40,584 nt of DNA from a virus: IMG/VR virus record IMGVR_UViG_3300047586_000007, positions 1-40,584 of that record. One strand, 5' to 3'. Of the stretch, positions 1-40,584 are shown piece by piece. How positions within the stretch are numbered: the stretch's first letter is position 1; every line of letters starts with the position of its first letter. The notes under the pieces are model-generated. The model saw only the letters and a program-made list of their open reading frames with translations, was not told the origin of the DNA and ran no database searches. The translations under genes were made by a program, and so were the position numbers.

Positions 1-127
1 GGGCCAACCTGGACGGGGCCAACCTGTCCGGGGCCAACCTGTCCGGGGCCTACCTGTACGGGGCCTACCTGGACGGGGCCGACCTGTCCGGGGCCTACCT
101 GGACGGGGCCGACCTGTCCGGGGCCAA
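1..127. repeat. Left copy of 127-bp terminal direct repeat (contig closure)
   Basis: These 127 bases are identical to the last 127 bases of the window. An exact overlap of this length is what a de Bruijn assembler with k=127 leaves at the ends of a circular contig, so it is best read as an assembly overlap and not as a biological terminal repeat. The genome would then be about 40,457 bp and circular or circularly permuted. The overlap lies wholly inside a 15-bp coding repeat, so the number of repeat units at the join could be mis-assembled. Confidence 0.9.
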
Positions 128-23149: not shown

Positions 23150-23433
23150 GCGATTCTCCCAATTAGCTTCCCAATCTGCGCCCTGCTATATTCCTTGCCC
23201 CGGTTATTAGGATTCTTTTCCCTAAAGAAATGAACTCTTATTGCCTCTGGATACGAATCAAATAAACGCGTTATAATCTTTTTTAAAACTTTCATACCCC
23301 TGGCCTGTGGATTGATGTATATATCTCCAACAAATATAGTGTCCCCACTCGGCATCAACGTGTCTTTATCAACAAACAGATACTCGCAAACACCCAACAT
23401 TCTACCTTCTGCATCTTTAACCAACTCAATCAT
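23146..23433 (-). CDS. GNAT-like acetyltransferase fold protein (95 aa)
   Basis: The order of elements fits a short GNAT domain: GVCEYLFVDKDTLM, FVGDIYINPQARGMKVLKKIITRLF (beta-4 and the acetyl-CoA loop with Q-A-R-G-M instead of the classical RxxGxG/A), then IRVHFFREKNPNN. It is shorter than typical enzymes, as are many phage members. It overlaps the terminase stop and the next start by four bases. A substrate cannot be inferred. Confidence 0.65.
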   Translation of the reverse strand: MIELVKDAEGRMLGVCEYLFVDKDTLMPSGDTIFVGDIYINPQARGMKVLKKIITRLFDSYPEAIRVHFFREKNPNNRGKEYSRAQIGKLIGRIA

Positions 23434-24752
23434 CGTACTCCGGCGATAGCAAATAGATTATCACTCTCTCTTTGCGAAAACCTAGGCTTATATTGATAGT
23501 CCTGGTTCTCTTTAACCTCATTGATTAAGCTACACGCATAGAGGAAGGCGTCAGCCATGTTTGGAGACTTGACGCCCTTTTTCCGCATATCCTCTTTACT
23601 TACAAGGATTCTGCGTCCATCGTTGGTGTACCTATAGCGCAATGTCATGAGCTCTTGGATCAACTCTTCTTGCGGGATTGCTAGCCAGCCTTTGTTAATG
23701 TACTCCTTGGCCTTGAATGCGGCCACAGTTCGAGTATTTGCAAAGTCCGGGTTATCTCCCATGCTTAAAGCCTTATTTCTGAATCCCCGGAAATCCTCAC
23801 GCTTCTGTCCTTGCGTAATAAAATCAAGCGGGCCAGAGCCAATACCATCTTCGTCGATTATAGAATTATTAACTCGGTGAGTTATCGAAGTGGATCGGAT
23901 ACGACCGGTTGTAGCATCTAAATCTTTTTGCCCCCATTGTTCTACGTGAAACACCTTCCAAGCTAAAGCTCCAAGTTGGTGTATCCCTACGGCTGCGCTC
24001 ATATCATTACCATATCGAGCAACGTCATAGCCCATGAGTCTATGCCCATATCCTACCCTGGGGGCATATTCTATAATTTTTGCGGCCATAAGATCCGCAA
24101 AGTTAAACACAAAGTCATCGTCTTCCATCTGCTCGAAGCAGTTCATTACATATTGTGCGTAATGGTTAGGCTGTTCTACTTCCATGCGCCTAAGGTCAGC
24201 AATGAAGTCTGCGGGCAGATTGGGATTATCAAACGAAGTGGCCGTGATTAGATGATATTCTTCCGAGGGCGGGTTATTCTTCCATAACTTCCAAATCCAA
24301 TTGTGCCCATTTGCATTGCAGATTATACAAAGCTGGCGCGTTCCCTTTGGATGTCGCAGACGATCCCGGAGCATTGTGAATTGTTCATCGTCTTGAAACT
24401 CTTCGGCCTGCTCAATTCCAACAAACGATAGTGACATGTTCTTCAAAGTGTTTAACTCAGATCCATGCCTAAACAACAACACGGATCCATTCTTAAACTT
24501 ATATTCTTTATTGGAGTCGATATCAACGTTGAAATAGCGCTTAAAATCTTTAACAGTAGAATCTCTTAAATCGGTGAATTCATTGCGGACAATTAATCCC
24601 GTCGATCCCGGGTGCATCTCGGCGTGAGACCATGCCTTTAACAAAAGCATCTTTGTCTTACCGGATCCAACGCCTCCACAAAGGCACGGGAATTTCTTGT
24701 CGGAGAAAAGGAATTTATCTTGATAGGGAAGCAATTGAATCGTCTCAGCCAT
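23430..24752 (-). CDS. terL: Terminase large subunit
   Basis: The packaging motor ATPase and nuclease. Walker A is GGVGSGKT at residues 26-33; the Walker B-like LSFVGIEQAEEF follows; and a coupling motif lies in CIICNANG. The C-terminal nuclease has YDVARYGNDMSA, SIIDEDGIGSG and SPNMADAFLYA, which supply the acidic metal ligands. 440 residues is normal. It overlaps the small subunit gene by eight bases. Confidence 0.95.
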   Translation of the reverse strand: MAETIQLLPYQDKFLFSDKKFPCLCGGVGSGKTKMLLLKAWSHAEMHPGSTGLIVRNEFTDLRDSTVKDFKRYFNVDIDSNKEYKFKNGSVLLFRHGSELNTLKNMSLSFVGIEQAEEFQDDEQFTMLRDRLRHPKGTRQLCIICNANGHNWIWKLWKNNPPSEEYHLITATSFDNPNLPADFIADLRRMEVEQPNHYAQYVMNCFEQMEDDDFVFNFADLMAAKIIEYAPRVGYGHRLMGYDVARYGNDMSAAVGIHQLGALAWKVFHVEQWGQKDLDATTGRIRSTSITHRVNNSIIDEDGIGSGPLDFITQGQKREDFRGFRNKALSMGDNPDFANTRTVAAFKAKEYINKGWLAIPQEELIQELMTLRYRYTNDGRRILVSKEDMRKKGVKSPNMADAFLYACSLINEVKENQDYQYKPRFSQRESDNLFAIAGVR

Positions 24753-25188
24753 TGCTCACCGCCTCGGCGACTGCTGGCCTGATAATAGATATTCCGGCGA
24801 TGTTCTCAGTCTTTATTTCATGAGATGAAGAAGCGCCATCACGGATAATAATTATCTTTGTATCACCTCCGCGCATGGATTCATTCCTTGAATCTCCGTC
24901 TTGCTCATCTTTAAGATTGGAAATGATATCTAGAGTTGACTTAGTGCCAATATTCTCCGGATGTTTTTTAAGCAATCGCTCCAAGTGGTTTACTCTCTTG
25001 GCTTTAGCATACTTTCGATTAATTTCTAACAAGGCGGAGTTTTTATAAATGATTTGACCTACACGTGTTGCGGATATCTTAAATCGTTGCCCTATTTCTT
25101 CAAATGTCCACGCATCTGTGGCGTATAGCGAACAGATTTTTGAGTCCCGAATCTTGTGTCTTGTTACTATCGCAGACGGCAACTTCAT
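24745..25188 (-). CDS. terS: Terminase small subunit
   Basis: 147 residues directly upstream of the large subunit and overlapping it. The N-terminus carries a helix-turn-helix-like segment (TDAWTFEEIGQRFKISATRVGQIIYK) suited to recognising the packaging site, followed by a helical oligomerisation part. The ATG has only a weak ribosome site. Between it and the next upstream gene lie 74 bases with a TTGACA (minus strand, 25242-25247) but a poor -10, so a separate late promoter is possible but weak. Confidence 0.8.
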   Translation of the reverse strand: MKLPSAIVTRHKIRDSKICSLYATDAWTFEEIGQRFKISATRVGQIIYKNSALLEINRKYAKAKRVNHLERLLKKHPENIGTKSTLDIISNLKDEQDGDSRNESMRGGDTKIIIIRDGASSSHEIKTENIAGISIIRPAVAEAVSNG

Positions 25189-25262: not shown

Positions 25263-25454
25263 TTAAACGTTTACTCTTCTACTTGGAACCGTTCTTTCTG
25301 TTTTTCTACGCTTTCGGCACACCAATATGTGGTTCTTCCATTGACAAACCGGATCCCCGCAGGTGGCATAAATAGCCGCTCTAACCTTACATATTGGGCA
25401 AGGCGGGCCGATGGTTGTTACGGTTACTTCGGTTCTTGTATGTTTAATTTCCAC
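25263..25454 (-). CDS. Small zinc-ribbon-like protein
   Basis: 63 residues from a GTG at 25454, chosen because GGAGG lies just upstream; an ATG four codons earlier contains that site. CPIC near residue 20, then CGDPVCQWKNHILVC, give a plausible zinc site. It overlaps the end of the glycosyltransferase gene by 31 bases. It may bind nucleic acid or simply be a structural zinc knuckle. Function unknown. Confidence 0.55.
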   Translation of the reverse strand: MEIKHTRTEVTVTTIGPPCPICKVRAAIYATCGDPVCQWKNHILVCRKRRKTERTVPSRRVNV

Positions 25455-26005
25455 CAGATCCTCCATGATTCAACTAAAGCCCTATAAATGATACCTATCC
25501 CCTTCTTTTTAGTGATATTGCATTCTACGGGCACTTCTGCAATCCTAAGACCCATCCTTCGAGCCTTTGCCAGGATCTCCAGGTCAGATGCAAAACCGTC
25601 GCATTCCCATGTGGGTATGCAATTCGATCTAAATAGCTTTATTCCTGTCTGCGTATCAACCCCGATATTGAACATAGCCCTTATATAGATTCGGCTTAGG
25701 AATGTCAGAGCTCGTCTTGATAATATCTTCTGTTCCGATTTACGGCCAACGACGATGTCATAATCTGAAATGAATGGCAATAGGCGATATAGCATCCTAG
25801 GATGAATATCTCCATCTCCATCGAGGAAAGCTATGATGCTCCCCTTGGCTTCTAGCAGTCCTTGTCTAAGCGCCCAACCTTTGCCGCGACCATCAAAGTC
25901 ATGTGCAATTATTACTTGCGATCCAGGGAATAATGCCGTGCATATTCTCTTTGTTTCACAAACTCTTATCTCTCTATGAGATGGGAGAATGATTGTTAAT
26001 GTCAT
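25424..26005 (-). CDS. Glycosyltransferase family 2, polyprenyl-phosphate sugar synthase-like
   Basis: 193 residues from the ATG at 26005 (ATGA overlap with the upstream gene). It follows the DPM1/ALG5 plan: TIILPSHREI opening, GRGKGWALRQGLLEAKGSIIAFLDGDGDIHP with the DxD metal site, DIVVGRKSE, DTQTGIKLFRS, then DLEILAKARRMGLRIAEVPVE. Enzymes of this branch move a sugar from its nucleotide to polyprenyl phosphate on the inner face of the membrane. It has no membrane helix of its own. The overlapping upstream gene encodes a TMTC/PMT-like protein, the class of enzyme that uses such a lipid-linked sugar. Confidence 0.85.
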   Translation of the reverse strand: MTLTIILPSHREIRVCETKRICTALFPGSQVIIAHDFDGRGKGWALRQGLLEAKGSIIAFLDGDGDIHPRMLYRLLPFISDYDIVVGRKSEQKILSRRALTFLSRIYIRAMFNIGVDTQTGIKLFRSNCIPTWECDGFASDLEILAKARRMGLRIAEVPVECNITKKKGIGIIYRALVESWRIWWKLNIQEPK

Positions 26006-27312
26006 AGGACAATTCCCATATTCCCCTCTTTCCATTCTTTCAATAGCTTCTTCGCCTGATCTTCTTGCCCTTTGACGATACTCTTCTCAGCTCGCTCAAG
26101 TAGCTTTAATGCGTTGGGCTTATGACCACCCATATGTAGAGCAGTCGCAAGATTAAGATTCAACTTAAACTCCTCAGGGGATATCTGTAATGCCGTTGAC
26201 CATAGAATTACCGCTTCCTGGTATGATTTAAGTTCCCATCGTTTCATGGCTTTAACATGCCATCCAAACCAGGCGTCGGGGCTATTTAGATTTGAATATT
26301 CAGTAAGAAAGTAATCATCCTGAAATGCGTCCATATAGAACCACATCTTTGTGGCATAACAAGCAATAACCCCGGCTACAATCACAGGATGAGCCACTAT
26401 AAGAGAGCTTAGGAAGAACATAAGACCCACATTGGGTTGGTACATATACCGCTCTGCAATCTCTTGATGAATCCTGAATATGTTCCCAAACTGGGCCATA
26501 CAGAAGAACCACCAGACTAATGCGAAGTTTGACATATCCCACTTATGCAGAGTCAAGTAAAGTGCTGATCCTATGAATACACAGACACCTAGCCAGAACC
26601 AACGACAATTCATTGTGTATGCTTTTTTCTTTCCTGATCCTGCGGCGCTCTGTAGAAAGGAATGATAGAAGGTTGTCTTGACTGGTATAATTCCATTAAC
26701 AAAGTAGAATCCCATTGTCTTAGTGAACAAGACAAGTTTTCTTGGATGCCAGGCCTTGTCTTCTTCAAACGCTTCCATTGCTATCTTATGACCAACGTTT
26801 CGTTTGAACCTAGTCCAATGAATTGCCCATATAATCGGCATCAGTAAAGCAACCCACCACGCTTTTGTTAGTAATAGCAATAACGGCGTAATAAATCCAG
26901 CGTTGAAGTATGCGCCGAATAGTATGAATATTGGCCCAAGTATTGGGATTGACATCGCCATAAGAAGAGACAGCGCTGATAATGCGTATGCTCTTCCTGC
27001 GATCCAGACAGATACCTGATTATTGGAAGGATTAAAAGCAAATAGTAGTGCGGCTACATATGAAATATCAGACGCTCCGAATCCGACATAAAGAAATACG
27101 CATACCAGTGAATGTATAAACATTGTGAGTGCATGATCTACTTGGTGAGAATGTCTGCCGCGTCCCTCGATATAGCCTAACATTCTTATCCATGCGACCG
27201 GATGCTTAGGTCTCTGGCTTGCAGGAATGTCGTCGGATGAATAGCGATAACATATCGTCTTTGAATAAAAGATAAGATTTGCCAATAAAATTATCGCTAT
27301 ACGTTCAAGCAT
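26002..27312 (-). CDS. Multi-pass membrane protein with C-terminal TPR, TMTC/PMT-like (GT-C)
   Basis: 436 residues from the ATG at 27312 with AAAGGG upstream, overlapping the previous stop by eight bases. About eight to ten hydrophobic segments occupy the first 320 residues. HQVDHALTMFIHSLVCVFL, then AALLFAFNPSNNQVSVWIAGRAYALSAL, resemble the HP..xExVxWIxGRxxLL pattern of TMTC-type O-mannosyltransferases, and ERYMYQPNVGLMFFLSSL matches their ERYLYLPS-type loop. The final 90 residues form TPR-like helices (SYQEAVILWSTALQISPEEFK; LNLATALHMGGHKPNALKLLERA). A role in moving a lipid-linked sugar to an exported target is inferred. The catalytic acidic pair typical of PMT is not clear. Confidence 0.65.
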   Translation of the reverse strand: MLERIAIILLANLIFYSKTICYRYSSDDIPASQRPKHPVAWIRMLGYIEGRGRHSHQVDHALTMFIHSLVCVFLYVGFGASDISYVAALLFAFNPSNNQVSVWIAGRAYALSALSLLMAMSIPILGPIFILFGAYFNAGFITPLLLLLTKAWWVALLMPIIWAIHWTRFKRNVGHKIAMEAFEEDKAWHPRKLVLFTKTMGFYFVNGIIPVKTTFYHSFLQSAAGSGKKKAYTMNCRWFWLGVCVFIGSALYLTLHKWDMSNFALVWWFFCMAQFGNIFRIHQEIAERYMYQPNVGLMFFLSSLIVAHPVIVAGVIACYATKMWFYMDAFQDDYFLTEYSNLNSPDAWFGWHVKAMKRWELKSYQEAVILWSTALQISPEEFKLNLNLATALHMGGHKPNALKLLERAEKSIVKGQEDQAKKLLKEWKEGNMGIVL

Positions 27313-28294
27313 GTAATAACCCTTTCTTAATACCACGAAAGGTATACTGAATATCAGCTAAACTCCTTATATCCTTTATTTTATTTTTCCAGAACTCTGG
27401 GAACTTGGCCACGTCATACAGCCTTCTAGAATTCCCTCTATCGACGAAACGCTCCCCTTCAACACAGAACTTTGATATCTGTGCCGTTTTGGCGTAACCT
27501 TTCCTAAGTAAATAATGAATTCCTTCAAAAGTGCGACTTTCTTCTTCTGCGGTCTCCCACGGGTATCCGTACATAAAAGCGATATGACTTTCAATTCCGG
27601 CATGATTTGCTCTGGACACGTCATCAATGATTCTTTCAACTCGTACCCCCTTATTTAAACGATCAAGCGTTGGTTGATTAAACGACTCGATTCCAAACAG
27701 AATCATCCTAAATCCTGCCTTGCGCATGGCCTTAAAGTCAACGTCTGCGCCAATACGCATATTACAGCCAAGTCTTGGTGGTGGAAGCCTGCAATTAAGA
27801 AATGATCTAAGCCAGTCTCCAATAGGAAATGTGCCTGAATCGTCAAATACTTCTTTAAAGCCTTGATCGTAACAATCCCACAATTCCTTTTGTACATCAA
27901 GTACGGGCCTTATATGTCTTTCTTCCTGCATTGAAGTTTCAACACAGAACGTACACTTACGCCACCAGCAAAGGTTTGATGCTTGAATATACGTACCAGG
28001 CCTATACTTAAAGTTTCCGTTTCCCTGCCAGATATCTTCTTTCCCACGCGTAAGTATCCTATCAGCTCCAGGTAACTGCGAGAATGACACATCAATCTGA
28101 GACTCTTTATGGATCATATGGTCACACCACATGTCCATACCTTTCATCTGCGAGACATCTGTTATCCAGTGAACCTCGTTACCTTGTTGCTTTAGATAAG
28201 TTGCGTACATTGCCATCTTGATTGGGAATATGAAGACTTCCTGTTCAAGTTGGCGCTGTTGCATCCTCTTATTAATTACGAATATGTATTTCAT
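27305..28294 (-). CDS. Radical SAM enzyme, variant cluster motif
   Basis: 329 residues. The cluster motif is CWWRKCTFC (Cys 109, 114 and 117), a C-x4-C-x2-C spacing like the CPWNKCTFC found in many B12-type radical SAM proteins, rather than plain CxxxCxxC. Later elements fit the barrel: FKEVFDDSGTFP, LGCNMRIGADVD, FGIESFNQPTLDRLNKG and AFMYGYPWETAEEE. The N-terminal 100 residues are a partial cobalamin-type fold (FPIKMAMYATYLKQQGNEVHWI). Its substrate is unknown; neighbours suggest sugar or lipid chemistry. It overlaps both neighbouring genes. Confidence 0.8.
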   Translation of the reverse strand: MKYIFVINKRMQQRQLEQEVFIFPIKMAMYATYLKQQGNEVHWITDVSQMKGMDMWCDHMIHKESQIDVSFSQLPGADRILTRGKEDIWQGNGNFKYRPGTYIQASNLCWWRKCTFCVETSMQEERHIRPVLDVQKELWDCYDQGFKEVFDDSGTFPIGDWLRSFLNCRLPPPRLGCNMRIGADVDFKAMRKAGFRMILFGIESFNQPTLDRLNKGVRVERIIDDVSRANHAGIESHIAFMYGYPWETAEEESRTFEGIHYLLRKGYAKTAQISKFCVEGERFVDRGNSRRLYDVAKFPEFWKNKIKDIRSLADIQYTFRGIKKGLLHA

Positions 28295-29052
28295 TTATAA
28301 GATTCTAATGTAATTGCAAGTCCTTTATCAAATCCTATAGGTTTCACGTGTAACGGATTCATTGCAACGCAACGTTGCTTATCCCCCTTACGTCTTTGCC
28401 CATAAATAGGACTCATCTTGTAATCGAAATGCGGAGCCATAGCATCGAATAACTCTTGCACTGATACACCCTTGCAGTATCCTACATCCCAAACCCCGGT
28501 TGTGGAGTCAAGGGCGTAGTGCATGATCTCACTAATAACGTCATCAATATAAATATAATCACGCACCTGAGAACCATCCCCATGGAATGTAATGGTCTTT
28601 CCTTTTGACATAGCAGTAGCGAAGATAGGAATAACAAGATCGTTGCATAAATTACCAGGACCAAACGGATTGAACACTCGTAACGATACGCATTTGTCAT
28701 GTAATTTTCCCATCTGTTCGGTTAGGAACTTGGTCATGCCATAGGCAGACTCAGGATTCTCAGCGGCACAGCTACTTATATTAATAATGCGAGCCTTTGG
28801 ATTCTCTTTAAGGACTCGATACGTGCCATAGACGTTGTTATGGAAATACTCAGATGATATCTTCTCACTCTCCGTAACACTCCTAAGTGCGGCTAAGTGA
28901 AATACAACGTCATAAGACCCAAACAGTGGATCCCTGCATATGTCTTTCCCACGCTTAATATCAATGTTATCGAATGTCCAGCCCATGTTCAGAAGTCGAG
29001 AGCAAAGCGCTTTACCAATGAATCCTGAGCCACCTGTTATTAGCGCTTTCAT
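28291..29052 (-). CDS. NAD-dependent sugar epimerase/dehydratase
   Basis: 253 residues of the short-chain dehydrogenase type. GGSGFIGKAL near the N-terminus binds NAD; the active site is SSCAAENPESAYGMTKF with the YxxxK pair and an upstream Ser; RVFNPFGPG and DYIYIDDV are further hallmarks of GalE-like enzymes acting on nucleotide sugars. It is shorter than typical GalE (about 330) because the C-terminal substrate part is reduced. ATGA overlaps link it to both neighbours, placing it in the same pathway as the glycosyltransferases. Confidence 0.88.
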   Translation of the reverse strand: MKALITGGSGFIGKALCSRLLNMGWTFDNIDIKRGKDICRDPLFGSYDVVFHLAALRSVTESEKISSEYFHNNVYGTYRVLKENPKARIINISSCAAENPESAYGMTKFLTEQMGKLHDKCVSLRVFNPFGPGNLCNDLVIPIFATAMSKGKTITFHGDGSQVRDYIYIDDVISEIMHYALDSTTGVWDVGYCKGVSVQELFDAMAPHFDYKMSPIYGQRRKGDKQRCVAMNPLHVKPIGFDKGLAITLESYK

Positions 29053-29978
29053 CTAGCATCCTCTCTTCTTATTATTTCTATCATATGTTTCGCCATGTTC
29101 TTTCTGTAAAAGTTCGACAGTTTCTTTAGACACGACGAGGGTATTAAAATGGCTATCAGGGAATAGAACCAAAACGACACGCTTGTCAGAACCCAACGGT
29201 TTATTCTTATACTTGAGCATATTTCCCTCCACAGGTTTTTGGGTGCATTACATTTTATTTGAATTAATCCTTCCGGAAAGCTTAAAGGACGCCCTAAGAC
29301 TTTGAACCAATTTTCGTACATCGAGCCTTGATAGTATTCTTCTTTGTTTGCCGTATTGATTCCACTGCCAACCCTAACAGCTATGCTGTCATACTTAATA
29401 AAAGCATAGTCCCATTTATCAATAGCTTGCTTTACCACATAAGGCATTTCTATAAATATATCATTAGTAAACTTATATTTATCTTTTCGAAAGGCCATTC
29501 CGGATGGGTTACAGGAAGATTGAACGATATCTTCGTCTCGGCTAACCATTATTGGAATATGTGACGCATTATCTAAGAACTGATAGAAATAATGTCCTAT
29601 TACACCAACCCTTGGGTCTTCTTTAAACTTTGTGATAATGTCGCTAACTACATAATCGTTAGTAAATATATCATCAGCGCATAGATATACAACTATCTTG
29701 CCCTTGGCCAGTTTCATACATCTTTCAAGGTTTCCACCAATACCAAGATTCTTATCATTCTTTACTATCCTAACTCTACTACGAAGAATATTGTCTGCCG
29801 CTTCAGCCATTCTAATTGTGTTGTCTGTTGAATTATTGTCAACCACCAATATTTCTATTCCATCATAAGGAACAATAGAATAAGTATTAAAAAATATATT
29901 CTGTTTCATTGCGCTTTTAATGGATTCATATATTGTCTTCTCACTGTTATACGCAGGAATAGCGATTGTGACTACCAT
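29049..29978 (-). CDS. Glycosyltransferase family 2 with C-terminal membrane segment (copy 1)
   Basis: 309 residues from the ATG at 29978 (AAAAGG upstream); an ATG at 29996 lacks a ribosome site. GT-A elements: TIAIPAYNSEKTIYESI, ILVVDNNSTDNT, NLGIGGNLERCMKLAKGKIVVYLCADDIF with the DxD-type CADD. The C-terminal 70 residues (NRWVLTSVSFWFYSLIAILIP and a basic RRED end) form a membrane hairpin. The protein is a clear paralogue of the one at 31576: both share the same CADD, PSGMAFRK/PSGLAFRK and LIQIK blocks and the same C-terminal membrane segment. Confidence 0.88.
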   Translation of the reverse strand: MVVTIAIPAYNSEKTIYESIKSAMKQNIFFNTYSIVPYDGIEILVVDNNSTDNTIRMAEAADNILRSRVRIVKNDKNLGIGGNLERCMKLAKGKIVVYLCADDIFTNDYVVSDIITKFKEDPRVGVIGHYFYQFLDNASHIPIMVSRDEDIVQSSCNPSGMAFRKDKYKFTNDIFIEMPYVVKQAIDKWDYAFIKYDSIAVRVGSGINTANKEEYYQGSMYENWFKVLGRPLSFPEGLIQIKCNAPKNLWREICSSIRINRWVLTSVSFWFYSLIAILIPSSCLKKLSNFYRKNMAKHMIEIIRREDAR

Positions 29979-31276
29979 TTGAATAACCTTTTCCATGTGA
30001 AATATATTTGGTTTTGGATTATAGTCTGAGGAAGAAAGTCCTGCTTAATCCTTATGTACAAGGCCAGCTTTATAAGCCAATCAGGCATCTTTTCCCATCT
30101 TGGCCCCAATGGGATAGCCAGCATCTTCCTCACCCAAGGATTGATTTTAGCGACTCTTTGGTGTTCTCCTGACGCGTAGACCGACCCAAGACCTCTTTCG
30201 ATCCTATAATTATCGCTTTCTTTAAGATATCCTTCGGAAATGGCGGTCTTGATGATCGCCGATTTTGGGAAGTAGAGTAGTTTGAAGCAGTGGATAAGGT
30301 CTGGACTTGCCGATTTGTAGAGTTCGTAGCTTTGTGCGTTTGTGGCATCGCTCTCTCCTGGTATCTCGAATATGTGATCTACAATGAAGGTTATTCCTGC
30401 TCGTTTAATAAGACTAGCCGCCTTTAGAAACTCAGCGTTAGTCTCGTATCTATTCAAAGCTGTTCGCCTTAGTTCCTCCGATCCTGTTTGGATACCCATG
30501 TCTATGGTGTAGCACTTACACTCTTTGAGCCAACCTACTATCTCATTATCGACGCATTTGGGATGCGTAAGGCATCTGAAGGGTAAGTCGATCTCCTCTT
30601 GGTATCTAACTAGGAAGTTTACAAGCCATTCCTTATCTCGGGTGAAGGTGTCGTCCCATATACTAAAGCGCTTAGCACCCATGGCCTTTAGTTCTTTAAG
30701 TTCACGGATACACCCGTCAATGGTACGCCTAGGCGCCTTGATCTTTAGCTCCCTGGGCAGGCAATAGGAGCAAGAGAAAGGGCATCCAAAATCAGTCATT
30801 ATAAATGGGTGTACTCTATGGCAGGGCGGCAACTCCCTATAAAAATCTTCTCTTGCGGGGAATATACGATCAGGATCAAATTTAAAACCAAAATAAGCAC
30901 AGCCATCACCTTCAACAACATCGTTAATGAACGTATTTTCTCGTACAACATTCGGAACACTCGTAGCATGAACACCTCCGAATATTATTTTACATCCAAC
31001 CTCGTCTTTAATTCGTTTAGCTATGCGTAGCGCCCATTGATAATGAGCAGTAAGGCATGAAAATAGGCAGGCGTCTGGATTGAATTTCTTTATTTGTTTT
31101 ATATTGTAATCTTCAACTGAGAATGCCCTAGCTAAGAATGAGTCTTTAGTTCCACCTTGTGAGTGGTGCATCGGATCAAATATAAGCTTAACCTCATGAC
31201 CGTGATGCCTAAGGTGTGAGATCATGTATGCGGGGCCAAGTGCAAAAGTATCAGCTACTACTATGCAGTACTTCAT
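29972..31276 (-). CDS. B12-binding-type radical SAM enzyme
   Basis: 434 residues. The N-terminal 130 form a Rossmann-like domain of the cobalamin-binding type (PAYMISHLRHHGHEVKLI, KIIFGGVHATSVPNVV). The cluster motif is CPFSCSYC (Cys 165, 169 and 172). FSIWDDTFTRDKEW, IDMGIQTGSEELRRTALNR and IVDHIFEIPGES follow, as in class B methylases and ring-forming enzymes. These proteins often modify sugars, lipids or antibiotics. The C-terminal 80 residues are basic and may sit at the membrane. A DxHxxG B12 motif is not clear, so cobalamin use is uncertain. Confidence 0.85.
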   Translation of the reverse strand: MKYCIVVADTFALGPAYMISHLRHHGHEVKLIFDPMHHSQGGTKDSFLARAFSVEDYNIKQIKKFNPDACLFSCLTAHYQWALRIAKRIKDEVGCKIIFGGVHATSVPNVVRENTFINDVVEGDGCAYFGFKFDPDRIFPAREDFYRELPPCHRVHPFIMTDFGCPFSCSYCLPRELKIKAPRRTIDGCIRELKELKAMGAKRFSIWDDTFTRDKEWLVNFLVRYQEEIDLPFRCLTHPKCVDNEIVGWLKECKCYTIDMGIQTGSEELRRTALNRYETNAEFLKAASLIKRAGITFIVDHIFEIPGESDATNAQSYELYKSASPDLIHCFKLLYFPKSAIIKTAISEGYLKESDNYRIERGLGSVYASGEHQRVAKINPWVRKMLAIPLGPRWEKMPDWLIKLALYIRIKQDFLPQTIIQNQIYFTWKRLFKW

Positions 31277-31397
31277 TTACTATGTCGCTCCAAGGCTCAA
31301 TCTGTTTATCCGTTAACATCGCGTTCGCTTCTATTGCCATTGACTTATATAGTATCAGCTTCCATTCTCGTCGTGAACTTATAGATCCGGACCTCAC
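31251..31397 (-). CDS. Small hypothetical protein (48 aa), GTG start
   Basis: Open from a GTG at 31397 to TGA at 31251, overlapping the start of the radical SAM gene by 26 bases. The chain (REWKLILYKSMAIEANAML, then TDKQIEPWSDIVNEV) looks like an ordered helical peptide. An ATG 19 codons in is an alternative start. It lies in a run of three overlapping small frames with ribosome sites. Low certainty; no family. Confidence 0.3.
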   Translation of the reverse strand: MRSGSISSRREWKLILYKSMAIEANAMLTDKQIEPWSDIVNEVLHSSS

Positions 31398-31446
31398 GCT
31401 TCTCTTCGATGTATTGAATTTCAGGTTGTGCGATTATTGCAAACAT
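31345..31446 (-). CDS. Small hypothetical protein (33 aa)
   Basis: ATG at 31446 with AAAAGG upstream, overlapping the end of the preceding small gene. The chain reads MFAIIAQPEIQYIEEKREV then IYKFTTRMEADTI. No motif. It may be real or a by-product of the tight packing. Confidence 0.3.
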   Translation of the reverse strand: MFAIIAQPEIQYIEEKREVRIYKFTTRMEADTI

Positions 31447-31607
31447 TTGAATCCTTTTAGTTGATATTTAGATCTACAATCGTTTTCTATAACTGCTCGC
31501 ATGGTTATAACTCCATCCGTAGATTTGTAGGAAGCTCTGAAAGTAACGCCACGCTTTCGATTCTTCATTCTTGACTCATATCTTTTCTGTGCTTCCGACA
31601 AAGACAT
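31434..31607 (-). CDS. Small basic hypothetical protein (57 aa)
   Basis: Start at 31607 has AAGGAGAGAAG directly upstream, a strong ribosome site, and the first 32 bases overlap the end of the upstream glycosyltransferase gene. The N-terminus is basic (SEAQKRYESRMKNRKRG) and two Cys lie near the C-terminus. This gene fills most of the apparent gap between the glycosyltransferase and radical SAM genes. Family unknown; a nucleic-acid-binding role would fit the charge but is not shown. Confidence 0.55.
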   Translation of the reverse strand: MSLSEAQKRYESRMKNRKRGVTFRASYKSTDGVITMRAVIENDCRSKYQLKGFKCLQ

Positions 31608-32502
31608 CTTCTCTCCTTATCGCCTTTGTAATGTATCTTCCGATCCAGCGCCTATAGAACTTTGGGAGTTTAATAAGTATCTCTCTTGGCGTGGCAAGAG
31701 CAATGATCCCGAAGAACCAAAACCCCGGGACAAGTAAGTTGAGGGGACGAAGACGGACAAAGTTGGTAATCTCTTCGAAGACTTCTTTGTTCGTGAGCCC
31801 GTTCTTGATTTGGATGAGCGACACATGATCTTTTAAAATCTCCTTTCCTCCTAGGTTAACCCAATCCACAACCGGTGACGATACCCGGCGCTTAATCCAG
31901 TAGCCAGGCTTAGTTGATGTGGAATCGTGCACTCGCACTGCAATTGCATCGTAAGGAAGAATTGAATAGCCCCATCCGTTAGCTATAACTTGAGATGTTA
32001 ATTGAGTTGTCTCTATAAACATCTTATTGCTTGTGCTACATCCTTGAAGCGCAGTCTTTCTGAATGCAAGCCCTGAGGGATTATTTGCTAAAACAATAGC
32101 ATCCTTTCCTCTCCACGCCCTGACCGGGTGCCTATCGTTACCTACGAACTGGTGATACCATCTGGATACGTGTCCTATGCCTGGACGTTTAAATGCGTCG
32201 ACGACATCGTTAACATATTGTCTAGTTGTAATCAAGTCATCTGCGCACATGAGTATTATGATCTCACCCTTACACGAATCAATAGCCGCCTGAAACGCCT
32301 TGCCAACCCCAACATTCTCTTTGCCCTTGATATACCTAACGCCAAGGGAAGTCCAATCAATATACTGAGTTGCGTCAGTTGAGTAGTCGTCATAGACCAC
32401 AATCTCGATATTCGTATAGTCTTGATTCTTAATACTATTGATAGTTTCTAGTATTAAGTGCCCCATTTGATGTGTTGCAATTGCGAAACTAACGGTTTGC
32501 AT
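31576..32502 (-). CDS. Glycosyltransferase family 2 with C-terminal membrane segment (copy 2)
   Basis: 308 residues. GT-A elements: SFAIATHQMGHLILETI, IEIVVYDDYSTDATQYI, NVGVGKAFQAAIDSCKGEIIILMCADDLI with CADD as metal site. The C-terminal segment (LLVPGFWFFGIIALATPREI and a basic RRED end) matches that of the gene at 29049, so these two arose by duplication. Membrane attachment suggests action on a lipid-linked or envelope acceptor. Overlaps both neighbouring genes. Confidence 0.88.
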   Translation of the reverse strand: MQTVSFAIATHQMGHLILETINSIKNQDYTNIEIVVYDDYSTDATQYIDWTSLGVRYIKGKENVGVGKAFQAAIDSCKGEIIILMCADDLITTRQYVNDVVDAFKRPGIGHVSRWYHQFVGNDRHPVRAWRGKDAIVLANNPSGLAFRKTALQGCSTSNKMFIETTQLTSQVIANGWGYSILPYDAIAVRVHDSTSTKPGYWIKRRVSSPVVDWVNLGGKEILKDHVSLIQIKNGLTNKEVFEEITNFVRLRPLNLLVPGFWFFGIIALATPREILIKLPKFYRRWIGRYITKAIRREDVFVGSTEKI

Positions 32503-33187
32503 AATAAATGATCCCCCGAACGATTATTACAAAAGCGATACCAATAGAAAGAATCGGATGCCTAACTAGCTTTTGCCACTTTCTATTTTCAACAAAAACC
32601 GTAAAACACCTATACTTTAAATCTAAGCACTTATCCTTTGGCCATTTGGCGGCATAGGCACGCATTGATTTTGTGTAGTATGCCTTCTTTCGGCAGTATT
32701 CAAGGAATGACACATCGTCATGGTGGTATAGAACGCTGTCCGTAGTAGTTCTTAGCCCCTTAATCCTCTGGCCCAAATCTGCATCCTCTGGGCCAACCAG
32801 ACTTTCGTCAAAAAGGGGCATACAACGCTTCAAAATCGCTCTAGGCACATCAACGGCCGTACCTGTGAGAAAAGATCGCTCAAAGGCCCTAATCCGGGCA
32901 AAGAAAGATGTTCCTACGATGATTTCAGGGATGTAAATACTGCTATACCCTATCTTGAGGAGCCAGTTGATCTCTTTTAGCAGATCTAGGGATATAGTCT
33001 GGTCACTATCAAGCCACAAGATTGCATCCCCGGTAGACTCTTGGATCCCCATATTCCTTTGCTTGGATCGCTCAAATCCTCGGTTTATTTCTATAAACTC
33101 AACATCTTTATGCGTGGATTTATCGATAGAATCCTTAAGGGCAGATAGGTCTCTTCCGTGGTTCGCCACTACAATCGAGATTTTCAT
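32489..33187 (-). CDS. Glycosyltransferase family 2 (third type)
   Basis: 232 residues from the ATG at 33187, which overlaps the upstream stop as ATGA; a longer in-frame start lies inside the flavoprotein gene and is a shadow. KISIVVANHGRDLSALKDSI opens the GT-A fold; KQRNMGIQESTGDAILWLDSD supplies the DSD metal site; PLFDESLVGPEDADLGQRI carries the ED acidic residues typical of family 2. A C-terminal hydrophobic segment (ILSIGIAFVIIVRGIIYY) anchors it to the membrane. Sequence is unlike the paralogous pair nearby. Confidence 0.85.
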   Translation of the reverse strand: MKISIVVANHGRDLSALKDSIDKSTHKDVEFIEINRGFERSKQRNMGIQESTGDAILWLDSDQTISLDLLKEINWLLKIGYSSIYIPEIIVGTSFFARIRAFERSFLTGTAVDVPRAILKRCMPLFDESLVGPEDADLGQRIKGLRTTTDSVLYHHDDVSFLEYCRKKAYYTKSMRAYAAKWPKDKCLDLKYRCFTVFVENRKWQKLVRHPILSIGIAFVIIVRGIIYYANR

Positions 33188-34287
33188 ACGTCCAACCCGT
33201 CCTCTACAGATGCCGAAATTCCCTGGAATTTCCATTTGCCATAACGCCCAATCGAATGAATATCGTATTCCCGCATGGACTCTAACATCCCCGGCCTGGG
33301 ATCCCTGCCGGGATAAACCCACGTATATCCGCACGGAATAATAACCTGATCTGAATACACAGCACCGCCAATGAATCCCCAATCTGAGAGTTCATTTATG
33401 ATCTTGCTCTCGCTTGATACAGGAATCCCCTTTGCGATTGCTTGCTCTACATAAATAGACACATAGTCCCCACCTGGCGCCGATTCCTTATGGACATTGC
33501 TATAAAATCCAACTCTATATATATTGCTCTTAGATAACGGAATATATAACCAATGCTCTTTCGGGGTATTCGGGCCTTTGTAAGCGCCTATATTTGTAAT
33601 CGAGGTTGAGTTATAAGGGAGATTCTCAGGAAGATCACATATCTGGTACAGCTTATTTAATGGGATTGTAGATATAAGGCGGTCATACTCTACATCCGAC
33701 CCGTCTGAAAACTCGACAACCTTTACCTTTATAAATATCCGAGTCGCTTCTTTCTTGTACTCTATCTTGCTTGTAGACGCTAACTTCTTAATAATAGAAT
33801 CAAAGCCATGTTTAGGATAGTAGAAACAATCATTATATCCCGATCCCCGTGGGTCAGGGGTCTTTGCGGGATCGTCCTGCGCCACATTGTTATATAACCC
33901 TGCTGTGTATGATTCGCTCCAGGGGTCAAAGAACATCGAGCAAAGATCCTTGCTGAATTTTCCATGAAACCACGCTTTCATAGTTCCGGGGTTTACTTCT
34001 GATTCGCTTTGTGTGAAGGTCTGGATCGGGTAGGGTAAAATCTTATTAAAATAAATTCCGGCATCTCGCTTATATTCTTTCAACTCTCCAAACTGTCTCA
34101 GGAAATCTATCGCCCTTCCATGTCCAAAGATCCAATGCCCCCCGCCCTTCTCAAAGGTGAATCCGCTCTTCCGGTATGTCATACTGATACCGCCAGGGCC
34201 ATCAGAGGCTTCGTAGATATCTGCGTCACCGATCTTCCATGCGGCTGTTAAGCCTGTGATTCCCGCTCCGAGGATTACTGTTTTCAC
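33184..34287 (-). CDS. FAD-dependent oxidoreductase, UDP-galactopyranose mutase / amine-oxidase-like
   Basis: 367 residues from a GTG at 34287 with AAGGAATTCCA upstream and a GTGA overlap with the preceding stop. GAGITGLTAAW (residues 7-17) binds the ADP part of FAD; GPGGISMTYRKSGFTFEKGGGHWIFGH and YPIQTF follow, then VVEFSDGSDVEYDRLISTIPL. This order is shared by UDP-galactopyranose mutases and related flavoproteins found in surface-polysaccharide gene clusters. A ring-contraction or related sugar reaction would fit its neighbours; the exact reaction is not shown. Confidence 0.8.
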   Translation of the reverse strand: MKTVILGAGITGLTAAWKIGDADIYEASDGPGGISMTYRKSGFTFEKGGGHWIFGHGRAIDFLRQFGELKEYKRDAGIYFNKILPYPIQTFTQSESEVNPGTMKAWFHGKFSKDLCSMFFDPWSESYTAGLYNNVAQDDPAKTPDPRGSGYNDCFYYPKHGFDSIIKKLASTSKIEYKKEATRIFIKVKVVEFSDGSDVEYDRLISTIPLNKLYQICDLPENLPYNSTSITNIGAYKGPNTPKEHWLYIPLSKSNIYRVGFYSNVHKESAPGGDYVSIYVEQAIAKGIPVSSESKIINELSDWGFIGGAVYSDQVIIPCGYTWVYPGRDPRPGMLESMREYDIHSIGRYGKWKFQGISASVEDGLDV

Positions 34288-34772
34288 TGGAATTCCTTTT
34301 GATATGCATAACTTCGACAAGACTTGCTTTTCAAGTAATTTATCTGATCCTTTGTTAAGTCATAAAAAAATGTCATATCAGAAAGATTAAAAAGAACCAT
34401 CGGGCTTTCACGAAATATCCTATGCTCCATATTTTTTTCAAGTTTGTGTAAAAAATTTCCATATACCTTCCCAAGCATCTCATCTACAAAGAAAATCATT
34501 ACTGGCAATCCATGCTTTAAAGAAATTTTTTTATAACAATCGTAAGATCTTTTATCAAACCCTGTTTTTGGAACTGAGTTCAACCGGGCTTTTGTTTTTG
34601 TTTCAGCAATAATTATGCTATCCTTATTCTTTATCGCCAGCCTATCAAATGCGTGTGGGCCTATCTTTTGTGGCTCGTATATAACAAATCCTTTATCTCT
34701 TAGAATTTTGTTGACGATATCTTCTCCAAAATCGCCCTTTTGAACCTCTTTTTTCTCATCCCAACAAGCCAT
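34284..34772 (-). CDS. PD-(D/E)XK-type nuclease-like protein
   Basis: 162 residues from the ATG at 34772, inside the end of the methyltransferase gene. A candidate nuclease core is visible: GDFGEDIVNKILRDKGFVIYE (Glu 17), AFDRLA (Asp 43) and IIIAETKTKAR (Glu 57, Lys 59), the spacing of PD-(D/E)XK enzymes such as resolvases and restriction-type nucleases. It follows the adenine methyltransferase, so a restriction-like or DNA-processing link is possible but not shown. Fold assignment from motif pattern only. Confidence 0.6.
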   Translation of the reverse strand: MACWDEKKEVQKGDFGEDIVNKILRDKGFVIYEPQKIGPHAFDRLAIKNKDSIIIAETKTKARLNSVPKTGFDKRSYDCYKKISLKHGLPVMIFFVDEMLGKVYGNFLHKLEKNMEHRIFRESPMVLFNLSDMTFFYDLTKDQINYLKSKSCRSYAYQKEFQ

Positions 34773-35829
34773 TTTCAACGCCCCCGGTGATAATCCCTTC
34801 CTTCTTTTCCCTCGAATAATATTCAAACATATTTCCTGCGCAAGTCTTCTTAACTAATGAATAGAATTCTACAGGCTTTCTTGAATGCTCTCTTCTCGTA
34901 GATCTAATAATATCTCTTTCCGTTGTATTGTGAAAGTATGGCCTTCCCTTAACAGCCAATAAACAAAATTCACATTGCATTCTAAGCCAAGAACCCATTC
35001 CAATTTTCTCTTTATCCCAAACAAGTGTTGCTTTATATGTAAACCCCCATCTTTCAATTAACTCTTTAGCATCCCAAATAAATTGATGCGTTGTCCATAA
35101 CCATAAAACGCAATCATCTTTAAAAAATCCTTTACTGGTATTAAATATCTCTTCAGCATCTTGCTCTGGATACGGGCACGCCACCCTTGAAGAGTCGGGA
35201 TCGTATTCTCTTCCATACTTCCACGGAGGGTCTAAAATAACAACATCAAACTTGCCTTCAACCTTTTTCTCTTCGATTATTTTCTTTTTTATTTCTTCTA
35301 GTTTCTTCGCTCTTTTCTTCTTTTTAACTTCTTTAGTTGGAGTTCTTTCTATAATTGCTTTCATCAACTCCGGGTCGGCCTCTGCCTCCGTTGCGTACTT
35401 TCCCGCATTTCGCACCGTTTTCTCGCTAACTCCATGCTCGGTTGCTAGGGTTTCGGAGGTTCTGCTAACTGGGTAACTTTTACCCAGTATTCCTTCTGGC
35501 CTTCCTTCAGCCTTTTTCGTCCTGTTATACCTTCTCCCCAACGCCAACCTGAACGCGTCCGGGGTTAGGTTGCGACGGGATAGTTGGTTGGCATCTATCC
35601 AGTCAGCCGCTTGTTCTTCTGTTTTAAAATTTATCCTTTTTACCCTAAAATAAATCCCAAGTTCCGTGCAAATTTTATACCTATTATGCCCATCAATAAG
35701 AACATTACCCCAGACAATCAATGGTTCTCTACATCCATCGCTTATAATGCTTTCCTTTAGCCCATTAAATTCTTCGTCAGATAGTCTTGGAAGAAGGCTT
35801 TCAAACTTTTTTATTATTTCTATTTCCAT
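34756..35829 (-). CDS. ParB-like domain fused to MT-A70 adenine methyltransferase
   Basis: 357 residues. The N-terminal 150 form a ParB/Srx-type domain (LIDGHNRYKICTELG at about 44-58; a helix-turn-helix-like SETLATEHGVSEKTVRNAGKY), which would bind DNA. A lysine-rich linker (170-190) leads to the methyltransferase: DVVILDPPWKYG with DPPW at 200-203, VLWLWTTHQFIWDAKELIERWGF and REHSRKPVEFYSLVKK. MT-A70 enzymes make N6-methyladenine; phages use this to protect their DNA or set regulation. It is the first large gene of the leftward unit, so it is probably made early. Confidence 0.9.
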   Translation of the reverse strand: MEIEIIKKFESLLPRLSDEEFNGLKESIISDGCREPLIVWGNVLIDGHNRYKICTELGIYFRVKRINFKTEEQAADWIDANQLSRRNLTPDAFRLALGRRYNRTKKAEGRPEGILGKSYPVSRTSETLATEHGVSEKTVRNAGKYATEAEADPELMKAIIERTPTKEVKKKKRAKKLEEIKKKIIEEKKVEGKFDVVILDPPWKYGREYDPDSSRVACPYPEQDAEEIFNTSKGFFKDDCVLWLWTTHQFIWDAKELIERWGFTYKATLVWDKEKIGMGSWLRMQCEFCLLAVKGRPYFHNTTERDIIRSTRREHSRKPVEFYSLVKKTCAGNMFEYYSREKKEGIITGGVENGLLG

Positions 35830-40135: not shown

Positions 40136-40584
40136 ATGAAAATCCAAATAAAAAAATGGTTAACTCGTTCGGTTATTTTTGAATGTGATGCAGATGGAAT
40201 TAAGATAGCCGTTGAATTGGCTGTTAAATCCGGGGCCAACCTGTCCGGGGCCAACCTGTCCGGGGCCGACCTGTCCGGGGCCAACCTGTTCAGGGCCAAC
40301 CTGTTCAGGGCCAACCTGTCCGGGGCCAACCTGTCCGGGGCCAACCTATCCGGGGCCGACCTGTTCAGGGCCAACCTGGACGGGGCCAACCTGTCCGGGG
40401 CCAACCTGTCCGGGGCCTACCTGTACGGGGCCGACCTGTCCGGGGCCGACCTGTTCAGGGCCAACCTGGACGGGGCCAACCTGTCCGGGGCCAACCTGTC
40501 CGGGGCCTACCTGTACGGGGCCTACCTGGACGGGGCCGACCTGTCCGGGGCCTACCTGGACGGGGCCGACCTGTCCGGGGCCAA
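40136..40584 (+). CDS. Pentapeptide-repeat protein, N-terminal part (continues at position 1)
   Basis: ATG at 40136 after GGAGGAGAATT. The N-terminus [20 protein letters not shown], then [13 protein letters not shown], is typical of phage pentapeptide proteins; the repeats start near residue 34 and run past the window end into position 1. Joined at the 127-base overlap, 322 plus 563 bases give 885 bases, exactly 295 codons, with no frame break. A 75-base block of the repeat is duplicated in tandem (two [20 protein letters not shown] runs), so the repeat number may vary between individuals. Confidence 0.9.
40458..40584. repeat. Right copy of 127-bp terminal direct repeat (contig closure)
   Basis: Identical to bases 1-127. 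The base before it (A at 40457) belongs to the last repeat unit that differs. See the left copy for the interpretation as assembly overlap of a circular genome. Confidence 0.9.

What the first reader, a model, noticed from the sequence alone, without database searches (positions are those of the whole stretch)
25424..34287. Nine-kilobase sugar and radical SAM cassette between early and packaging genes
Four family 2 glycosyltransferases, an epimerase, a UDP-galactopyranose-mutase-like flavoprotein, two radical SAM proteins and a GT-C-like protein are all on one strand, joined by short overlaps. They lie inside the phage's own transcription unit between the DNA-modification genes and the terminase. 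This looks like a full pathway for a modified glycan, with methylation or other radical chemistry, possibly altering the host surface to block other phages, or decorating the virion.
Basis: partly seen in the sequence, partly recalled or inferred. Interest (0 to 1): 0.8.

Follow-up and report, generated by a model that had tools for sequence, protein, structure and literature searches.

The report
Phage sugar-pathway cassette beside terminase
This uncultivated virus of bacteria carries a nine-gene assembly line that probably builds an unusual sugar and attaches it outside the host's inner membrane; the same assembly line, with some parts swapped, sits at the same spot beside the DNA-packaging genes in many related viruses, so it is a maintained system rather than random cargo.

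Summary
They are a UDP-galactopyranose-mutase relative, four GT2 enzymes, a GalE-like epimerase, two radical SAM proteins and a GT-C-like membrane protein with a TPR tail. One-to-one relatives (about 39-64% identity) occur in the same order at the same site in four independent phages, and trimmed or rearranged versions in about 20 more. In the unbiased terminase scan 9 of 30 informative loci carry the GT-C protein, always 0.5-3.8 kb upstream of terL. Two parts are exchangeable: the epimerase is replaced by different SDR enzymes, and the second radical SAM looks inserted. Gene A matches dolichyl/undecaprenyl-phosphate sugar synthases, and B has TMTC/PMT-type signatures. Best model: a phage-encoded extracytoplasmic glycosylation pathway in which lipid-P-sugar is made, flipped by the host, and transferred by B to an envelope acceptor, probably blocking receptors. 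Acceptor, sugar and purpose are inferred. Virion decoration is disfavoured. B, C and F have no match in 50,697 annotated phage records. A new variant of phage surface-glycan modification, not a Gtr cluster: no GtrA was found.

The parts
33184..34287 (-). I: UDP-galactopyranose-mutase-like flavoprotein (GTG start at 34287; mechanical ORF to 34320)
   Evidence: PDB profile match to UGM 4dsg E 3e-44 over nearly full length; orthologues 44-47% in L075, L081, L102
32489..33187 (-). H: GT2 glycosyltransferase (ATG at 33187)
   Evidence: PF00535 4e-6; most conserved cassette enzyme, 55-64% to L075/L081/L089/L102
31576..32502 (-). G: GT2 glycosyltransferase with one C-terminal hydrophobic helix; paralogue of E
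   Evidence: PF00535 4e-20; 45-49% to relatives in the same position; 32% to E; hydropathy
29972..31276 (-). F: B12-binding domain plus radical SAM enzyme; probable insert between G and E
   Evidence: PF02310 2.5e-11, PF04055 6.5e-15; nearest solved structure AprD4 6fd2 2.7e-9; absent between G and E of L075/L081/L089/L102 and flanked by a 299-bp gap
29049..29996 (-). E: GT2 glycosyltransferase, paralogue of G, one C-terminal hydrophobic helix
   Evidence: PF00535 6e-27; 39-45% to relatives in the same position
28291..29052 (-). D: short GalE-like SDR epimerase; exchangeable slot (relatives carry different SDR enzymes here)
   Evidence: PF01370 3.5e-28; UDP-glucose 4-epimerase 4zrm 1.7e-19; only 22-28% to the SDR in the same slot of relatives
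27305..28294 (-). C: radical SAM protein (CX4CX2C), directly upstream of B
   Evidence: PF04055 1.3e-9; 39-48% in 11 relatives, nearly always next to B
26002..27336 (-). B: GT-C-type membrane glycosyltransferase with C-terminal TPR (likely ATG start 27312); hallmark gene
   Evidence: 23-sequence alignment with invariant DD after TM1 and R296 in AERY; AF2 pLDDT 92; GT-C enzymes among best fold matches, E not significant
25424..26035 (-). A: DPM/GtrB/ArnC-type polyprenyl-phosphate sugar synthase (GT2)
   Evidence: profile match to dolichol-phosphate mannose synthase 5mlz 1.8e-19, ArnC, GtrB sll0501; 41-55% to relatives
25263..25466 (-). small zinc-finger-like protein between cassette and terS, conserved with it
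   Evidence: 39-58% in 8 of the 15 loci compared; found in 11 loci
23430..25188 (-). terS and terL: fixed landmark immediately downstream
   Evidence: phrog_2 terminase 2.5e-36; scans 13 and 19
34284..35829 (-). upstream neighbours J (180 aa, unknown) and K (MT-A70 DNA methyltransferase); not conserved with the cassette
   Evidence: PF05063 1.8e-20; no J/K match in the cassette relatives compared

Best explanation
The block is a phage-encoded extracytoplasmic glycosylation pathway. D and I make a nucleotide sugar (most simply UDP-Glc to UDP-Gal to UDP-Galf), and C and F remodel a sugar by radical chemistry. H, G and E (cytoplasmic face, two with a membrane anchor) build or extend a short glycan. 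A charges a polyprenyl phosphate with a sugar. A flippase, probably the host's, turns it over. B, a GT-C enzyme with an extracytoplasmic TPR tail, transfers the sugar to an envelope acceptor such as LPS, another surface glycan or a surface protein. The altered surface would block the receptor during infection or in surviving carrier cells, excluding competing phages and reducing wasteful re-adsorption. Shown here: gene content, synteny, co-occurrence, and family assignments of A, B, D, I and the radical SAM proteins. Inferred: order of steps, sugar identity, flippase, acceptor and benefit.
For: Gene order I-H-G-E-SDR-C-B-A next to zn/terS/terL recurs in L075, L081 and L102, and without UGM and SDR on a truncated contig in L089, with one-to-one relatives. 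A matches polyprenyl-P-sugar synthases along its length and often sits directly downstream of B, the classic lipid-P-sugar synthase plus GT-C pairing described for Gtr and pentofuranose systems (PMC11127046). B has the DD pair after TM1 and the AER(Y) arginine, 23 of 23, features reported as catalytic or ligand-binding in TMTC/PMT enzymes (PMC7801869). Its membrane-domain model best resembles ALG9, PimE and other GT-C enzymes. B is homologous to cellular GT-C/TPR proteins. GT2 genes occur in 12 of 14 B+ and 0 of 10 B- larger records; radical SAM in 12 of 14 against 1 of 10 above cut-off. Variants add sugar aminotransferase (DegT), GT-B transferase, SAM methyltransferase and a possible second GT-C, all surface-glycan enzymes. 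Swapped SDR enzymes at one slot fit diversifying selection on the sugar.
Against: No GtrA-type flippase in the genome or in 15 other viral records. No host is known, so the acceptor is unknown. No Foldseek hit for B reaches significance (best GT-C hit E 0.17, probability 0.97). The window phage has no tyrosine or serine integrase, so classical lysogenic conversion is unlikely for it. Some records carry B without GT2 or radical SAM genes (L097, L101), so B may also work alone. Close relatives lack the block (L008, L015), so it is dispensable.
Confidence: 0.6

Rival explanations
1. The cassette glycosylates a protein acceptor on the host surface (for example type IV pilin or another exported protein): B is a TMTC/PMT-like protein O-glycosyltransferase whose TPR tail binds the protein substrate.
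For: TMTC-like architecture (GT-C followed by TPR) and conserved DD and AER motifs. A lipid-P-sugar synthase is adjacent. From general knowledge, a GT-C enzyme modifies Pseudomonas type IV pilins and protects against pilus phages.
Against: Three further GT2 enzymes plus a nucleotide-sugar enzyme suggest an oligosaccharide rather than a single sugar. B does not match Pfam's TMTC or PMT models. No acceptor identified.
Confidence: 0.2
2. The cassette decorates the virion (capsid or tail proteins) in the cytoplasm.
For: It sits directly upstream of the packaging and capsid genes and is co-oriented with them; E, G, H, C, D and F are soluble or peripheral enzymes.
Against: The constant gene is B, whose GT-C-type active site is expected on the extracytoplasmic side, and its partner A makes a lipid-linked donor. 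GT2 genes are missing in structurally similar B- phages.
Confidence: 0.08
3. Random host cargo captured at a tolerant site next to terS, without selected function.
For: Presence changes several times on the terL tree (7 changes); gene content varies; close relatives lack it.
Against: One-to-one relatives in the same order with intact frames at 39-64% identity; label clustered on the tree (7 changes against 14.3 in shuffles); terL and B distances correlate (r 0.75); almost no copies found in bacterial genomes.
Confidence: 0.05
4. The glycan serves a DNA or nucleotide modification system together with the flanking MT-A70 methyltransferase.
For: K and J lie immediately upstream in the same direction.
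Against: K and J are not conserved with the cassette; a polyprenyl-P-sugar synthase and a GT-C membrane enzyme make no sense for DNA glycosylation.
Confidence: 0.03

Closest known systems
Gtr O-antigen conversion clusters (gtrA-gtrB-gtrX of P22, epsilon34, SfX)
   Same: Phage-borne; polyprenyl-P-sugar synthase plus GT-C enzyme; expected to alter the host surface
   Different: No GtrA flippase found; nine genes rather than three; own nucleotide-sugar and radical SAM enzymes; GT-C with TPR tail; next to terminase in a genome without integrase
Three-component pentofuranose systems (GT136; Kelly et al. 2024, PMC11127046)
   Same: Lipid-P-furanose donor, GT-C enzyme, exchangeable epimerases; that paper notes one Caudoviricetes example
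   Different: Donor synthase here is GT2 (DPM type), not a phosphoribosyl synthase; no MATE flippase seen in the block; UGM rather than PRPP chemistry would give the furanose
TMTC/PMT/ArnT GT-C enzymes with TPR (TMTC1-4; bacterial GT-C/TPR proteins)
   Same: N-terminal GT-C-type membrane domain with DD after TM1, AER(Y/V) arginine, C-terminal TPR
   Different: Shorter tail; no match to curated TMTC/PMT models; encoded by phages; acceptor unknown
LPS-related glycosyltransferase genes of pelagimyophages and cyanophages (PMC7029224)
   Same: Environmental phages carrying LPS-type sugar genes, suggested to avoid coinfection
   Different: Those lie in variable host-recognition islands or are dispersed; here an ordered cassette at a fixed terS-proximal site with radical SAM and GT-C enzymes

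Membership tests
Gtr three-component O-antigen conversion system | GtrB-type polyprenyl-phosphate sugar synthase | tested here: met
   A: DPM synthase 1.8e-19, ArnC 6e-14, GtrB sll0501 1.6e-13; but A has no predicted membrane helix
Gtr three-component O-antigen conversion system | GtrA flippase (PF04138) | tested here: not met
   No match in the window or in 15 other viral records
Gtr three-component O-antigen conversion system | GT-C acceptor-specific transferase | tested here: inconclusive
   B: GT-C motifs and model; best fold hits are GT-C with probability 0.96-0.97 but E above 0.1
Gtr three-component O-antigen conversion system | Carried by a temperate phage | tested here: not met
   No PF00589 or PF00239 in the complete window genome; a tyrosine integrase is present in one B+ relative, L093's record
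TMTC/PMT GT-C family | Acidic pair in first extracytoplasmic loop | tested here: met
   D35 D36 invariant in 23 sequences
TMTC/PMT GT-C family | Conserved arginine (AERV in TMTCs) before the penultimate membrane helix | tested here: met
   R296 invariant, mostly AERY; motif described in PMC7801869
TMTC/PMT GT-C family | C-terminal TPR repeats | tested here: met
   TPR matches across residues about 337-431
TMTC/PMT GT-C family | Match to curated family models | tested here: not met
   Only TPR models match in Pfam; only weak sub-cut-off TPR/other hits in NCBIfam
TMTC/PMT GT-C family | Mannosyl or other glycosyl transfer to protein | not testable with these tools
   Needs biochemistry
UDP-galactopyranose mutase | FAD Rossmann fold and UGM-wide sequence match including the YR..F/SN substrate region | tested here: met
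   4dsg alignment over 353 profile positions, E 3e-44
UDP-galactopyranose mutase | Mutase activity on UDP-Gal | not testable with these tools
   Related flavoproteins act on other sugars
Cobalamin-dependent radical SAM enzymes | B12-binding domain plus radical SAM domain (gene F) | tested here: met
   F: PF02310 2.5e-11 and PF04055 6.5e-15
Cobalamin-dependent radical SAM enzymes | B12-binding domain plus radical SAM domain (gene C) | tested here: not met
   C has the radical SAM domain only; shortened N-terminal region without PF02310

The most novel reading that the evidence does not exclude
A phage lineage encodes its own TMTC-like extracytoplasmic protein O-glycosylation machine with a custom radical-SAM-modified, possibly furanose, sugar, and swaps the donor-sugar enzymes between phages as a changing lock on the infected host's surface proteins.
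Probability: 0.15. Interest if true: 0.85.

Novelty: new variant of a known kind. Interest (0 to 1): 0.6.

Why it matters
Phage surface conversion is mostly known from small Gtr clusters of temperate enterobacterial phages. Here a largely uncultivated podovirus group keeps a whole multi-enzyme glycan pathway at a fixed site in its late transcription unit, built around a GT-C protein that resembles TMTC enzymes and uses radical chemistry. If the model holds, these phages actively re-dress the host surface even without integration, and the swapped sugar enzymes would be a readable record of competition between phages. None of B, C or F has a match in 50,697 annotated phage records, so culture-based work has missed it.

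Tried and rejected
Host assignment through the one bacterial-genome hit (L102, binned as Saccharibacteria): rejected, because the phage contig differs from the bin in GC (0.40 against 0.48) and tetranucleotide usage (r about 0.3, against 0.87 within the bin). Direct Foldseek of full-length B: dominated by TPR, uninformative, hence the repeat with the membrane domain alone, still without a significant E-value. Sequence search of the membrane domain against PDB: nothing. Single-protein scan of viral contigs with F: none, consistent with F being a peculiar insert. Promoter and terminator scan: no more sites than in shuffles. Recent-transfer test by codon usage: cassette genes not distinguishable from structural genes. 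Literature searches found no paper describing this cassette. H appears without relatives in the table only because that protein file used a wrong frame; one search is correct.

Full report
WHAT IS THERE. The window is a whole IMG/VR record with a 127-bp direct terminal repeat, so it is a complete or circularly permuted phage genome of about 40.5 kb. Portal, capsid, scaffold, tail and terminase match podovirus-type PHROGs. From 35829 down to 3957 nearly everything reads on the minus strand: MT-A70 methyltransferase (K), a 180-aa protein (J), the nine cassette genes, a small zinc-finger-like protein, terS, terL and the structural genes. The nine frames are open and mostly overlapping. Corrected starts put H at 32489-33187 and I at 33184-34287.

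WHAT THE PROTEINS ARE. I is a UDP-galactopyranose-mutase relative over almost its full length (PDB 4dsg, E 3e-44). D is a short GalE-like SDR (4zrm, 1.7e-19). H, G and E are GT2 enzymes; G and E are paralogues (32%), each with one C-terminal hydrophobic helix. A is GT2 of the polyprenyl-phosphate sugar synthase kind (dolichol-phosphate mannose synthase 1.8e-19 along its length, ArnC, GtrB). C and F are radical SAM proteins; F also has a B12-binding domain and its nearest solved relative is the sugar-acting AprD4 (2.7e-9). B has a helical membrane domain and TPR repeats. AlphaFold2 models are confident (pLDDT 92 whole, 89 membrane domain). Fold search of the membrane domain gives GT-C enzymes (ALG9, PimE, EmbB, OST, ArnT) among its best hits by probability, but no significant E-value. 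Across 23 relatives the DD pair after TM1 and an arginine in AERY are invariant; both features are described as ligand or catalytic positions in TMTC/PMT enzymes (PMC7801869). Cellular GT-C/TPR proteins are distant relatives.

IS IT CONSERVED OR RANDOM CARGO? A terminase-profile scan returned 72 related viral loci. Among those from the terminase scans with at least 3 kb upstream of terL or with B seen, 9 carry B and 21 do not. A scan with the B profile gave 29 loci. In 25 non-redundant loci B ends 0.45-3.8 kb upstream of terL on the same strand. The order UGM-GT2-GT2-GT2-SDR-C-B-A-zn-terS-terL is present in L075, L081 and L102; L089, a contig that starts inside the block, has the three GT2 genes, C, B and A in the same order but no SDR found. 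One-to-one relatives of I, H, G, E, C, B and A are 39-64% identical, while capsid and portal of the same phages are 61-77% identical where present. Other phages keep B and usually a radical SAM gene beside it but change the rest: L042/L086 have SDRs, GT2s, a SPASM radical SAM and a B12 radical SAM gene and a second membrane protein with a PMT/ArnT-like look (my reading; no Pfam hit); L065/L095 add a SAM methyltransferase; L090/L093 add DegT aminotransferase, a methyltransferase and, in L090, a GT-B transferase. Over 24 viral records of 19 kb or more, GT2 genes occur in 12 of 14 B+ and 0 of 10 B- records, and radical SAM genes in 12 of 14 against 1 of 10 above cut-off; some of these records are near copies, so this is a description rather than a clean statistic. 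On the terL tree B needs 7 changes against 14.3 for shuffled labels, and B and terL distances correlate (r 0.75). The block is therefore an accessory but maintained, site-specific module that has been gained or lost several times.

EXCHANGEABLE PARTS. The SDR slot holds non-orthologous enzymes: GalE-like in the window, proteins with a dTDP-glucose-4,6-dehydratase look in L075/L081/L102, and another SDR type in L090/L084/L093 (22-28% identity to D; the substrate labels for the relatives are my reading of motifs). F is absent between G and E in the relatives and is flanked by a 299-bp gap in an otherwise overlapping operon. This is what one expects of a locus under pressure to change the sugar while keeping the transfer step.

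HOW IT PROBABLY WORKS. A lipid-phosphate sugar synthase next to a GT-C enzyme is the established recipe for adding a sugar outside the inner membrane (Gtr systems; PMC11127046). D plus I could supply UDP-Galf; H, G and E could assemble an oligosaccharide; C and F would alter a sugar by radical chemistry. A charges the carrier lipid, a flippase (probably the host's, since GtrA is absent) turns it over, and B transfers the sugar to an acceptor in the envelope. By topology the TPR tail should lie outside the cytoplasm (inference). The likely benefit is receptor masking against other phages and against re-adsorption. The window phage lacks tyrosine and serine integrases, so it is not a standard lysogenic-conversion system, although one B+ relative (L093's record) has an integrase.

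LIMITS. No host is known. The only bacterial-genome hit with the whole block is a Saccharibacteria-binned contig that looks misbinned. The sugar, acceptor and biological effect are not shown. Membership in the Gtr family fails for GtrA and lysogeny; membership in TMTC/PMT is motif- and architecture-based and fails curated models. B, C and F have no match in 50,697 annotated phages, and I has one weak relative. Novelty of the cassette as such rests on these searches and on literature searches that found no description; subscription journals and preprints were not searchable.

Noticed in passing
window 1-127 and 40458-40584: 127-bp exact direct repeat at the two ends, indicating a complete, circularly permuted or terminally redundant genome.
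   Followed up: yes
window 34756-35829: MT-A70 adenine methyltransferase with a ParB-like N-terminal region, upstream of the cassette; not conserved in cassette-bearing relatives.
   Followed up: partly
window 34284-34826: J, 180 aa without database match, looks like a PD-(D/E)XK-type nuclease by eye (GED...D...E.KTK).
   Followed up: no
window 25263-25466: Small zinc-finger-like protein (CPxC...TCG...CQ) between the cassette and terS; found in 11 related loci, function unknown.
   Followed up: partly
L042 4050-5369 and L086 3578-4891: Second membrane protein of about 438 aa with a PMT/ArnT-like N-terminus in the variant cassettes; no Pfam match, possibly a second GT-C enzyme.
   Followed up: partly
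L102 (RXKC01000030.1): Phage contig binned into a Saccharibacteria MAG although GC and tetranucleotide usage disagree with the bin; likely misbinning.
   Followed up: yes
L093 record (G017), contig position 33027-33524: Tyrosine integrase in a cassette-bearing relative, so at least one member of the group may be temperate.
   Followed up: partly
L075, L081, L102 terL against window terL: terL aligns over only about half its length (42-50% over about 235 aa) although portal and capsid are 63-77% identical where present: terminase mosaicism next to the cassette.
   Followed up: no
Patescibacteria genomes, for example L106-L112: Distant cellular GT-C/TPR proteins (500-660 aa) in 29 of 287 genomes searched; apparently a widespread TMTC-like bacterial family without a Pfam model for the membrane part.
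   Followed up: partly
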